From the NCBI GenBank assembly GCA_903913345.1, contig CAIWLA010000274.1:1-5124 (forward strand): a stretch of DNA of 5,124 nucleotides. The letters run 5' to 3'. Positions within the stretch are counted from its first letter, which is position 1; each line of letters begins with the position of its first letter. Below the pieces are notes generated by a model. The model had not been told where the DNA came from. It saw nothing but the letters and a program-made list of their open reading frames with translations, and did no database searches. Shown here one piece after another: positions 1,617 through 2,758 of this stretch. A program made the position numbers and the translations under genes. Source of the DNA: an uncultured Magnetococcales bacterium. Its GTDB lineage: Bacteria > Pseudomonadota > Magnetococcia > Magnetococcales > Magnetaquicoccaceae.

Positions 1617-1974
1617 AATCCTTTTCCGGGGGTGGGCGATTTGTCGCCCACCCTACTGAATCAAGTCCAAGCAGGCCCCACCAATCCTGTGCGGCGTGAA
1701 GAACGCGCACGATCGACACGCCATCATGGCGAGGCATGTAGAAAATCAGGAGGTTGTCAAAATCCCTGACGCGCCATTTTCGCATCCCCGCCAGATCTGG
1801 ATTCCGCAGCGTCAGCGGGGAACCAGACAATGGGCTGGAGGCCAATTCGTCGAAACTGGCCTGTGCGTTGGTCAGAAACCGCTCGGCGACATCCATGTCA
1901 GCGTTGTCTGCCAGATAGACAAAGTGTTCGATAAGATCACGCCTTGCCCGCTCGCGCTGATACACTGTTCGCAT
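1525..1974 (-). CDS. parE: ParE/RelE-superfamily toxin with C-terminal extension
   Basis: Toxin of a type II toxin-antitoxin pair. ParE proteins poison DNA gyrase, while RelE relatives cleave mRNA; the sequence does not decide which. Residues 1-103 match the ParE/RelE fold: an N-terminal Arg-rich strand and helix ([12 protein letters not shown]), the central SPLSGSP turn, the [16 protein letters not shown] strands (64-79), and the closing [11 protein letters not shown] (89-99). Relatives commonly read HAARD in that last motif; here Arg is replaced by Gln. The ATG at 1974 overlaps the antitoxin stop as TGATG, which sets the start. Family members usually end near residue 100, but this frame continues 46 more residues through a palindrome and into antisense of the chemoreceptor 3' end, stopping at 149 aa. 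The tail is Pro/His-rich with no recognisable domain, suggesting a lost stop codon. Confidence 0.85.
1630..1656. repeat. REP-like palindrome or hairpin between convergent genes
   Basis: A perfect 10-bp stem (GGGTGGGCGA at 1630-1639 and TCGCCCACCC at 1644-1653) closes over a TTTG loop 13 nt after the chemoreceptor stop. On the - strand the arm is preceded by GTAG (1656-1653), the tetranucleotide that precedes REP palindromes mobilised by RAYT (TnpA_REP) transposases. There is no T-tract after the stem on the + strand, so it is not a textbook Rho-independent terminator, although it could still protect or end the chemoreceptor transcript. It lies inside the extended reading frame of the toxin gene. 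Being a repeat is an inference from one copy. Confidence 0.5.
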
Positions 1975-2234
1975 CAACGCGGTGCCCTTCTGGATTCCAG
2001 AAGGGCAAGGGCCTCTTTGCGAAGGCTGATCCACTCTGTCGAACCCATCTCCCTTTCGGGGCTGTTCAATCCTTCCAACAGTTTTGCTTCAAGCTGTTCC
2101 TGGGCCTTGATCTTCTCATCCGCGCGAATCAACTCACGCATATATTCGCTGGTGCTGCTGTAACGCCCTTGGGCAATTTGCCCATCCACAAACTGCTTCA
2201 GGGGTTCAGGCAGGGAAATGTTCATGCTTTGCAT
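1974..2234 (-). CDS. parD: ParD-family ribbon-helix-helix antitoxin
   Basis: Antitoxin and probable autorepressor of the operon. It is 86 aa. Residues 4-43 form a ribbon-helix-helix DNA-binding domain (strand MNISLPEPLKQFVDGQ, then GRYSSTSEYMRELIR, the typical ParD pattern). A charged C-terminal helix (about 44-83) is the part that wraps the toxin in this family. The ATG at 2234 is chosen because GAGAGG sits 5 nt upstream; the next ATG at 2225 lacks a ribosome binding site, and the longer frame from 2309 would read through the operator-like repeats. The gene directly precedes and overlaps the toxin by one base, the normal antitoxin-first order. Its last codons form a hairpin that covers the toxin ribosome binding site. 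Confidence 0.92.
   Translation of the reverse strand: MQSMNISLPEPLKQFVDGQIAQGRYSSTSEYMRELIRADEKIKAQEQLEAKLLEGLNSPEREMGSTEWISLRKEALALLESRRAPR
1983..2007 (-). promoter_or_regulatory. Hairpin masking the parE ribosome binding site
   Basis: In the - strand transcript the arms TGCCCTTCTGG (2007-1997) and CCAGAAGGGCA (1993-1983) pair perfectly over a 3-nt loop. The 3' arm contains AGAAGGG, the only Shine-Dalgarno-like sequence before the toxin ATG, ending 10 nt upstream of it. The stem lies in the last codons of parD, so ribosomes finishing parD would melt it. This would couple toxin translation to antitoxin translation. The pairing is seen directly; the regulatory role is inferred. Confidence 0.6.
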
Positions 2235-2256
2235 GAGGGCCTCTCTCTTTGAGTGT

Positions 2257-2445: not shown

Positions 2446-2474
2446 GCCACGGTCGGCGTCCAGGCCGCCGTGGC
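2446..2474. repeat. Strong hairpin after the small ORF
   Basis: GCCACGG (2446-2452) and CCGTGGC (2468-2474) are perfect 7-bp arms, with an inner GGC/GCC pair extending the stem over a short loop. It begins 8 nt after the stop codon of the small - strand reading frame. No T-tract follows on either strand, so it may stabilise an RNA 3' end or be a weak terminator. The function is not determined. Confidence 0.45.
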
Positions 2475-2481
2475 GACTGAG

Positions 2482-2574
2482 TTAGACTCTATTCAACAGA
2501 TCGACTATCCTGTCGATCGCATCCAGGAGCCGTATCAGCAGCTCCAGGATGGCCGTGATTAGCTGTTTCGTCAC
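2482..2574 (-). CDS. Putative 30-aa amphipathic helix peptide (TisB-like design)
   Basis: I do not recognise this gene by homology. A GTG at 2574 stands 6 nt after AGGAGG within AAAGGAGGTG (2588-2579), a near-complete match to the 16S anti-Shine-Dalgarno sequence and the best such match in the window. The 30-residue product starts MTKQLITAILELLIRLL and ends in LLNRV. About half the residues are Leu, Ile or Val. The charged residues E11, R15, D18, R22, D25 and R29 fall at 4-3-4-3-4 spacing and would form one stripe on a helix with alternating sign. Size and layout resemble TisB-type toxins that insert in the inner membrane. An in-frame ATG at 2634 would give 50 aa but has no ribosome binding site. 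The coding bases also fold into hairpins (2499-2518, 2521-2550), so a structured RNA is the alternative. Confidence 0.45.
   Translation of the reverse strand: MTKQLITAILELLIRLLDAIDRIVDLLNRV
2499..2550. repeat. Two tandem hairpins inside the small ORF
   Basis: GATCGAC (2499-2505) pairs perfectly with GTCGATC (2512-2518) over 6 nt. Two bases further on, ATCCAGGAGC (2521-2530) pairs with GCTCCAGGAT (2541-2550), with one A-A mismatch, over 10 nt. Together with the hairpin at 2446-2474, three stems sit within about 105 nt. They could be mRNA structure limiting translation or the body of a non-coding RNA. Confidence 0.5.
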
Positions 2575-2701
2575 GGCGCACCTCCTTTCCGCGATCCAGT
2601 TGATGGACGATCGCACTGGCCGGACCGCGTGCATGTTGCACAGTGCGACCGGCGGGGTGGAGGGAGAGAAACCCCTTGGAAGGTTGAGCTTCCGTCAGGG
2701 T

Positions 2702-2758
2702 ACCAAAAAAACCCTCGGACAGAAATGTTTGAGGGTTTTTTGTTTGCGTTTTTTTGGT
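2702..2758. terminator. T-rich bidirectional terminator with alternative pairing
   Basis: AAAAAACCCTC (2706-2716) pairs with GAGGGTTTTTT (2731-2741), giving a stem followed by T-runs on both strands, a classic bidirectional Rho-independent layout. A second, exclusive pairing is possible between ACCAAAAAAAC (2702-2712) and GTTTTTTTGGT (2748-2758). No recognised gene ends here: the nearest + gene upstream ends at 1616 and nothing on the - strand lies between here and nadA. It may insulate nadA, or end a small + strand RNA that covers the leader of the small - strand ORF. Confidence 0.65.

What the first reader, a model, noticed from the sequence alone, without database searches (positions are those of the whole stretch)
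2482..2588. Unannotated 30-residue helical peptide with a near-perfect Shine-Dalgarno and a single charged stripe
AAAGGAGGTG precedes a GTG frame whose product is a Leu/Ile-rich helix with E11, R15, D18, R22, D25 and R29 at exact 4-3-4-3-4 spacing and alternating charge. TisB, a 29-residue type I toxin, has this size and a narrow polar stripe, for which a charge-zipper assembly was proposed. Features consistent with a type I module are strong RNA structure around the gene and a nearby type II system. I know of no named homologue, so function is inference.
Basis: partly seen in the sequence, partly recalled or inferred. Interest (0 to 1): 0.7.

Follow-up and report, generated by a model that had tools for sequence, protein, structure and literature searches.

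The report
Scattered tiny-toxin cassette with knotted leader
This window holds one of 15 scattered copies of a roughly 330-base cassette found in four related bacterial genomes; each copy carries, intact or decayed, a gene for a peptide of about 30 residues predicted to form a helix, and most have an RNA leader with conserved crossing helices, predicted to form a knot, and a promoter-like site facing back across the gene, so the cassette is likely a toxin that the cell would hold in check with an antisense RNA.

Summary
The 30-codon GTG frame (window 2482-2574, minus strand; SD AAAGGAGG at 2581-2588) belongs to a family of 15 dispersed copies (12 intact, 3 decayed) in 4 of 7 genomes of one Magnetococcales genus; none was recognised in the other 41 genomes searched in the class. 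The frame is under protein-level selection: no stops, in-frame indels, conservative replacements (0 of 500 shuffles as good). The polar stripe is kept in every intact copy, but the strict 4-3-4-3-4 alternation is special to this copy. The larger finding is the leader: two crossing helices (an H-type pseudoknot, or two exclusive hairpins) end just before the SD and are supported by compensatory changes; wobble pairs show that the peptide strand is the folded one. Behind the gene a positionally conserved, mostly weak sigma-70-like promoter faces back through it towards a terminator, as an antisense antitoxin RNA would need. The searches made of protein, RNA, plasmid, phage and viral collections gave no credible match. 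Best reading: a new type I toxin-antitoxin-like family, analogous to tisB and timP, whose toxin mRNAs also need a pseudoknot. Toxicity, transcription and the antisense RNA are untested.

The parts
2706..2741 (.). Terminator-like hairpin with an A-run on one side and a T-run on the other; could stop the antisense RNA and insulate the peptide gene from upstream transcription
   Evidence: (listed by the scanner on the + strand); by inspection a like hairpin is seen in 14 of 15 copies, not in G6_C148
2697..2705 (-). TGGTACCCT, candidate extended -10 of the peptide mRNA
   Evidence: TGnTACCCT in 8 of the 14 copies aligned, near variants in 3 more; no convincing -35; weak, by inspection
2659..2669 (-). 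Pyrimidine tract predicted to pair with the SD
   Evidence: MFE fold; window SD unpaired probability 0.29-0.32 with the tract and 0.76 without it; a like rise in 4 of 13 copies, this one included
2641..2650 (-). Leader stem A, 5' arm
2620..2629 (-). Leader stem B, 5' arm, inside the loop of stem A
2609..2618 (-). Leader stem A, 3' arm
2590..2599 (-). Leader stem B, 3' arm, 1 nt before the SD; A and B cross as in an H-type pseudoknot
   Evidence: 127 of 130 arm positions pair over 13 copies, against 111 when arms are dealt between copies (0 of 2000)
2581..2588 (-). Shine-Dalgarno AAAGGAGG
   Evidence: sequence; purine-rich SD region at the same place in the other leader-bearing copies, weak in G1_C198
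2482..2574 (-). 30-codon peptide gene (GTG start, TAA stop), predicted amphipathic helix
2526..2545 (-). Hairpin inside the reading frame, GGAGC(tgctgatacg)GCTCC
   Evidence: RNAalifold consensus used for model R1; MFE fold
2446..2474 (-). GC-rich hairpin just after the stop codon
   Evidence: fold; by inspection present in the 14 copies aligned and in L087
2407..2435 (+). Promoter-like site facing the gene: TTGCTT-17-GATGAT with TG before the second hexamer; would start an antisense RNA of about 300 nt ending at the terminator
   Evidence: a TTG-17/18-nAnnAT site at the matching place is the top-scoring one in 13 of 15 copies; in this copy 33 of 500 shuffles score as high, and the simple scanner does not list it

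Best explanation
The peptide gene is one copy of a dispersed cassette that most likely works as a type I toxin-antitoxin-like module: its mRNA carries conserved crossing leader helices predicted to form a pseudoknot just before the ribosome site, and a promoter-like site on the other strand, conserved in place, would make an antisense RNA that blocks the message. Shown here: the coding frame, the polar stripe, crossing helices A and B on the peptide strand, the positionally conserved promoter-like site, and dispersal into mostly unrelated flanks. Inferred: (1) the primary transcript holds its SD in structure, in some copies by a pyrimidine tract; (2) a fold in which A and B coexist gives 30S or ribosomal protein S1 a landing place beside the SD and permits translation, as proposed for tisB and timP; (3) the antisense RNA, complementary to nearly the whole message, pairs with it and undoes that fold; (4) when antisense supply fails, the amphipathic helix enters the cell's own inner membrane and lowers the proton gradient.
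For: Family: 15 copies, 12 intact, in 4 of 7 genus genomes; among the flanks of 14 copies only a 44-nt stretch shared by G0_C364 and G3_C355, other local repeats and a pair of related EAL-domain genes match. Coding: 0 stops in 12 copies, pN/pS 0.62 (11 of 400 shuffles as low), replacements conservative (0 of 500), indels of 3 and 9 nt. Helix with a polar stripe in 12 of 12. Leader: stems A and B pair at 121 and 127 of 130 arm positions, against 73 and 111 for arms dealt between copies (0 of 2000 each); 31 G.U against 1 A.C, so the antisense strand would keep only 218 of 260 pairs. On an unadjusted MAFFT alignment of 12 copies: 88.9% of cells paired against 27-47% for slid partners, covariation score 0.248 against 0.186 +- 0.018 (0 of 500). 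Antisense promoter-like site at the same place in 13 of 15 copies. Two of three decayed copies lost leader and SD but kept the antisense half. Precedents: tisB and timP toxin mRNAs need a pseudoknot for translation (PMC7708055 abstract and passages; PMC11228461 passages; PMC11295053 part 1 of 2, nearly all of the text).
Against: No transcript, peptide or toxicity data. The antisense promoter is weak by sequence: shuffles score as high in 0 to 3 of 500 for only 5 of 15 copies and in 12 to 112 of 500 for the other 10, the window copy included (33). The sense promoter is only guessed. SD masking by the pyrimidine tract appears in 4 of 13 copies, one of them inconsistently. pN/pS 0.62 is modest, and codon-position differences (618, 457, 640 of 1817) are not strongly third-position biased. 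In one search two of five measures do not beat the shuffle (128 and 239 of 500). Arms were chosen by eye, in one copy a bulged base was left out, and the low shuffle value for stem A partly reflects two arm registers. Net charge is 0 to -2, whereas TisB is net positive (PMC8309996 passages), although 9 of 12 copies end with R or K within the last three residues.
Confidence: 0.66

Rival explanations
1. The folded RNA is the real product: the cassette makes a regulatory RNA and the short frame is incidental or only marginally used.
For: The leader arms are strongly conserved, the frame itself contains a conserved hairpin, and third codon positions vary little more than first positions.
Against: 0 stops in 12 copies against 6 to 37 in other frames, conservative replacements (0 of 500 shuffles), indels only in multiples of three, SD and start kept next to each other.
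Confidence: 0.08
2. A translated small membrane protein with a housekeeping or stress role, not a toxin, controlled by a structured leader; the facing promoter is incidental.
For: The peptide is amphipathic with near-zero net charge; the facing promoter is weak in most copies; no toxicity data.
Against: Several copies in some genomes and none found in 3 of 7 genus genomes, one of them 75% complete, decayed copies and placement next to varied genes fit a dispensable addictive cassette better than a housekeeping protein.
Confidence: 0.17
3. A small mobile or repeat element (MITE-like) whose spread explains the copies, with peptide and promoter as passengers.
For: 15 dispersed copies; the aligned ones have sharp ends and mostly unrelated flanks. 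No cassette hit lies on the nadA contig of the six other genus genomes, and the window's similarity to them begins only at 2850 or later.
Against: No terminal inverted repeats in the 3 copies checked, and protein-level selection on the frame. Dispersal does not exclude a toxin-antitoxin function. Target-site duplications were not examined.
Confidence: 0.06
4. A leader peptide or upstream frame serving the adjacent parDE operon.
For: parD lies downstream on the same strand in this window.
Against: A hairpin and about 240 bases separate them, and no ParD or ParE was found behind the other copies examined, whose neighbours vary.
Confidence: 0.02

Closest known systems
tisB/IstR-1 type I toxin-antitoxin (E. 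coli)
   Same: 29-residue amphiphilic helix with a narrow charged strip (PMC8309996 passages); translation needs a 5' pseudoknot (PMC7708055 abstract and passages).
   Different: No family-model match; in tisB the standby region lies about 100 nt upstream of the sequestered ribosome site and the antitoxin is encoded away from the gene, whereas here the crossing helices end next to the SD and the predicted antisense RNA would span the gene.
timP/TimR type I toxin-antitoxin (Salmonella)
   Same: Unprocessed toxin mRNA activated by a 5'-UTR pseudoknot supported by covariation; the antitoxin destabilises it (PMC11228461 passages).
   Different: TimP has 38 residues and TimR is divergently transcribed (PMC11295053); here the promoter-like site lies behind the gene and faces it.
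DinQ/DqlB (NCBIfam NF041473)
   Same: Short type I toxin family; 11 residues of one copy (G3_C122) align weakly.
   Different: 1 of 12 members, 16.2 bits against a cut-off of 35, E 0.0069: below membership.
Ibs and Ldr multicopy type I toxins (E. coli)
   Same: Several dispersed chromosomal copies of a very short hydrophobic peptide gene (copy number recalled, not from a call).
   Different: Ibs profile only E 1.3 in 1 of 12 members; no Ldr match (that Pfam holds an Ldr model is recalled).

Membership tests
Type I toxin-antitoxin systems (functional class) | Very short hydrophobic or membrane-active peptide under protein-level selection | tested here: met
   12 intact copies of 26-32 aa, selection and predicted amphipathic helix; membrane activity itself not testable
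Type I toxin-antitoxin systems (functional class) | Antisense RNA antitoxin transcribed at the locus | tested here: inconclusive
   Positionally conserved promoter-like site facing the gene and a terminator-like hairpin beyond it; scores modest; no RNA data
Type I toxin-antitoxin systems (functional class) | Structured toxin mRNA with hidden SD | tested here: inconclusive
   Conserved structured leader; SD masking by the 5' tract in 4 of 13 copies
Type I toxin-antitoxin systems (functional class) | Toxicity on expression, relieved by the RNA | not testable with these tools
   Needs an expression assay
Pseudoknot-dependent toxin mRNAs (tisB, timP) | Covarying crossing helices in the toxin mRNA leader | tested here: met
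   coexistence of the two helices not shown
Pseudoknot-dependent toxin mRNAs (tisB, timP) | Pseudoknot required for translation | not testable with these tools
   Needs arm-swap mutants and in vitro translation
TisB peptide family | Sequence homology to TisB | tested here: not met
   No Pfam family for the window peptide; only Ibs at E 1.3 in 1 of 12 members; that Pfam holds a TisB model is recalled
TisB peptide family | Narrow charged strip on one helix face | tested here: met
   polar residues clustered in 12 of 12 copies
DinQ/DqlB family (NF041473) | Score above the curated cut-off | tested here: not met
   16.2 against 35 bits, 1 of 12 members
Rfam antisense or toxin-mRNA families | Match at gathering score within the cassette | tested here: not met
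   0 in the window at gathering score; in L012, L024 and L042 at E up to 1, only hits far below cut-off over the terminator of L024 (mir-787 and ctRNA_p42d, 28.3 of 57 and 22.9 of 50 bits)

The most novel reading that the evidence does not exclude
A previously undescribed, dispersed family of type I toxin-antitoxin cassettes in Magnetococcales in which a pseudoknot abutting the Shine-Dalgarno sequence is the switch: the toxin message is read only when the knot forms, and an antisense RNA spanning nearly the whole message dissolves it. It would show that knot-gated toxin translation arose independently outside enterobacteria and is a general rule for such toxins.
Probability: 0.4. Interest if true: 0.76.

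Novelty: new member of a known kind. Interest (0 to 1): 0.62.

Why it matters
Pseudoknots that activate toxin mRNAs are shown for tisB and timP and predicted for zorO and shoB, all in enterobacteria; a commentary says that they may be more widespread and asks for genome-wide identification (PMC11295053). Here is an unrelated family, outside enterobacteria, with 13 leader-bearing copies whose crossing helices covary, including a largely rewritten second helix in this window's copy. It offers natural arm variants for testing knot-gated translation, and a set of 26-32 residue stripe peptides for testing how charge pairing governs membrane insertion. It also shows how easily such cassettes escape annotation: no protein or RNA family library searched here matched above its cut-off.

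Tried and rejected
Membership in known families: Pfam, NCBIfam and PADLOC scans gave nothing above cut-off, and the best of 4 PDB chains listed at E up to 10 had E 0.62. A protein search with the 50-aa frame that contains the peptide found no candidate. The one scan of genome contigs found 3 loci, all in the two MAGs that correspond to G003 and G006. Viral contigs: one exact DNA match (L069), rejected because the RNA model does not match it and no leader is seen; no match for one leader pattern and none by peptide alignment (14 pattern stretches, 0 confirmed). Plasmids and phages: no match, but only one 621-base piece of one copy (L012:280-900) was tried by blastn, so divergent copies there are not excluded.

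Wider spread: weak peptide matches outside the genus (3 genomes, loci read: 8 genomes at E 0.2 to 1, of which L021 was read) showed no cassette where read. The RNA model gave 33 weak matches (E 0.002 to 0.9) in 21 genomes of the class outside the genus. The 23 loci held, at least one from each genome, were tested for the peptide motif: 0 of 23, against 11 of 12 true copies; one (L052) had the leader motif alone. The antisense-promoter expression in that script was faulty (0 of 12 controls) and is not used. In 398 genomes sampled from the phylum (E up to 1e-4, stricter filters) the only hit outside the genus, G207 at E 5e-5, lies inside a long open frame and was rejected. G000:C95 and G003:C73 were rejected by reading them.

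The terminator as a generic genome-wide repeat: ACATTTCTGYC occurs 3 times in the own genome, the other two not as terminators; a similar terminator stands alone at L033 1766-1815. SD masking as a shared rule: not supported (4 of 13, G1_C198 inconsistent at 0.77 with the 5' end at -110). Neighbour scan: ORFs of 80 aa or more only, at E up to 1e-5; 40 of 42 chosen ORFs were scanned, the last two beside G1_C198 were not; G3_C211 was not examined for neighbours. mis-cut the G1_C198 peptide; repeated. The order flag for G3_C113 reads False because a short string also occurs earlier; the arms are in order by inspection.

Full report
What is there. The window also holds a chemotaxis receptor, a ParD/ParE pair, NadA and two HD-domain frames, one of them below its family cut-off. 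No Rfam family at gathering score and no tRNA was found.

A family of cassettes. Searching the own genome with the peptide found paralogues, the genus added more, and a profile of seven copies raised this to 13. A covariance model of leader plus gene, built from 12 copies, found a further divergent copy in a fourth genome at E 7.7e-18 and a fragment that proved to be a decayed copy. Totals are 15 copies: own genome G000 4, G003 8, G006 2, G001 1; 4 of 7 genomes of the genus; 12 intact and 3 decayed (G3_C412 and G3_C211 lost leader and SD, G6_C126 lost its stop). In the class search (48 genomes) the 41 outside the genus gave only weak matches; the 23 loci held from these, of 33 matches, had no such peptide. 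398 genomes sampled from the phylum added nothing credible.

The cassette. Aligned copies share about 330 bases and then stop being similar. In peptide orientation: a terminator-like hairpin flanked by A and T runs, a TGnTACCCT element in 8 of 14 copies, a pyrimidine stretch, crossing helices A and B, the SD, the frame, a GC-rich hairpin, and a block that on the other strand reads, in its commonest form, TTTTTGCTTG...AATTTGTGAnCAT. Flanks of 14 copies share only 44 nt between G0_C364 and G3_C355, other local repeats and one pair of related EAL-domain genes. In the six other genus genomes the window's similarity around nadA begins at 2850 or later, and no cassette hit lies on their nadA contigs; the G003 contig shows only about 330 bases before nadA. 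No terminal inverted repeats were found in three copies.

The frame is coding. In 12 intact copies there is no stop, while the five other frames hold 6 to 37; pN/pS is 0.62 over 25 ungapped codons against 0.88 +- 0.18 for shuffled columns (11 of 400 as low), and only 6 of 400 shuffles are free of stops. Replacements are conservative: mean BLOSUM62 -0.23 against -1.09 +- 0.24, 0 of 500. Internal length differences are multiples of three. Differences by codon position (618, 457, 640 of 1817) are only weakly third-position biased. The peptide is predicted as one helix, and polar residues cluster on one face in all 12. L12 and D18 are invariant, and I9, E11, L13 and L16 nearly so; R22, needed for the exact alternation, is found in this copy only.

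The leader. Stem A (window 2641-2650 with 2609-2618) encloses the 5' arm of stem B (2620-2629), whose 3' arm (2590-2599) ends 1 nt before the SD. With arms chosen by eye over 13 copies, A pairs at 121 and B at 127 of 130 positions; dealing 3' arms between copies gives 73 and 111 (0 of 2000 each; the low value for A partly reflects two arm registers). There are 31 G.U and 1 A.C, so the complementary strand would keep 218 of 260 pairs: the peptide strand is the folded one. On an unadjusted MAFFT alignment of 12 copies, which puts the window's stem B out of register, 88.9% of cells pair against 27.4-46.7% for slid partners, and the covariation score is 0.248 against 0.186 +- 0.018 (0 of 500), though two of five measures do not beat the shuffle (128 and 239 of 500). 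The window's stem B is largely rewritten and still pairs at 10 of 10 positions, two of them G.U. Whether A and B coexist or alternate is not shown.

The facing promoter. On the opposite strand a TTG-17/18-nAnnAT site at the matching place behind the gene is the top-scoring one in 13 of 15 copies (not G6_C126 or G1_C198), and 11 of those 13 have TG before the second hexamer. Individual scores are striking (0 to 3 of 500 base shuffles as high) in only 5 copies and ordinary (12 to 112) in the other 10, the window copy included (33). The simple scanner listed it in one of the three loci scanned, G3_C122, and not in the window. An RNA from it would cross the gene and leader and meet the terminator-like hairpin.

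Context. Type II toxin-antitoxin genes lie within about 1.5 kb of 4 of the 14 copies examined (window ParDE, ParE by G6_C148, TacA by G3_C113, HigB by G3_C412); other copies sit beside ordinary genes such as a type II/IV secretion ATPase, FlgK, FixS, a DegT-family aminotransferase and glycerol-3-phosphate dehydrogenase, or beside ORFs without a Pfam match. No background rate was measured.

Interpretation. A very short stripe peptide under selection, a structured leader with crossing helices beside the SD, a facing promoter-like site, several dispensable copies and decayed remnants together point to a type I toxin-antitoxin-like module. The papers consulted support the analogy. tisB mRNA needs a 5' pseudoknot for 30S and S1 binding (PMC7708055, abstract and passages). 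timP needs a covarying leader pseudoknot that its antitoxin destabilises (PMC11228461, passages). A commentary suggests that such knots may be more widespread (PMC11295053, part 1 of 2, nearly the whole text). The TisB strip, its net positive charge and the usual positive C-terminus are from PMC8309996 (passages); here net charge is 0 to -2, though 9 of 12 copies have R or K within the last three residues. Searches for 'Magnetococc' with 'type I toxin' and 'magnetotactic' with 'type I toxin-antitoxin' found 0 papers in the held library; that, and the lack of family matches, is the basis for calling the family undescribed. No paper held joins 'TisB' with 'charge zipper'.

Limits. No expression, toxicity or structure-probing data exist here. 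The sense promoter and transcript ends are guesses. SD masking by the pyrimidine tract holds in 4 of 13 copies, one of them inconsistently. Membership in the TisB, DinQ/DqlB and Ibs families was tested by family models and not met.

Noticed in passing
L042:1121-1204 (-): Rfam sRNA-Xcc1 (67.5 bits, gathering 53) about 200-300 bases behind the G001 copy of the cassette.
   Followed up: no
L023, L031 and L035 flanks (G003 C122, C113, C412): A different repeat of about 140 bases, up to 99% identical and also present inverted, lies near three of the cassette copies.
   Followed up: no
L033:1766-1815: A stand-alone terminator-like hairpin with the same loop (ACATTTCTG) as the cassette terminator, just behind the G3_C7 copy.
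   Followed up: partly
window 1651-2237: ParE/ParD type II pair on the minus strand, directly behind the cassette; similarity to the nadA region of relatives begins only at about 2850, just before nadA.
   Followed up: partly
window 2526-2545: The conserved core of the frame doubles as a GGAGC...GCTCC hairpin, so coding and RNA structure may constrain the same bases.
   Followed up: partly
window 2466-2476 and 2568-2578: An 11-base inverted repeat (91%) could pair the start-codon region with the stretch just behind the stop codon, a long-range lock of the kind recalled for other type I toxin mRNAs; not listed in the two other copies checked.
   Followed up: no
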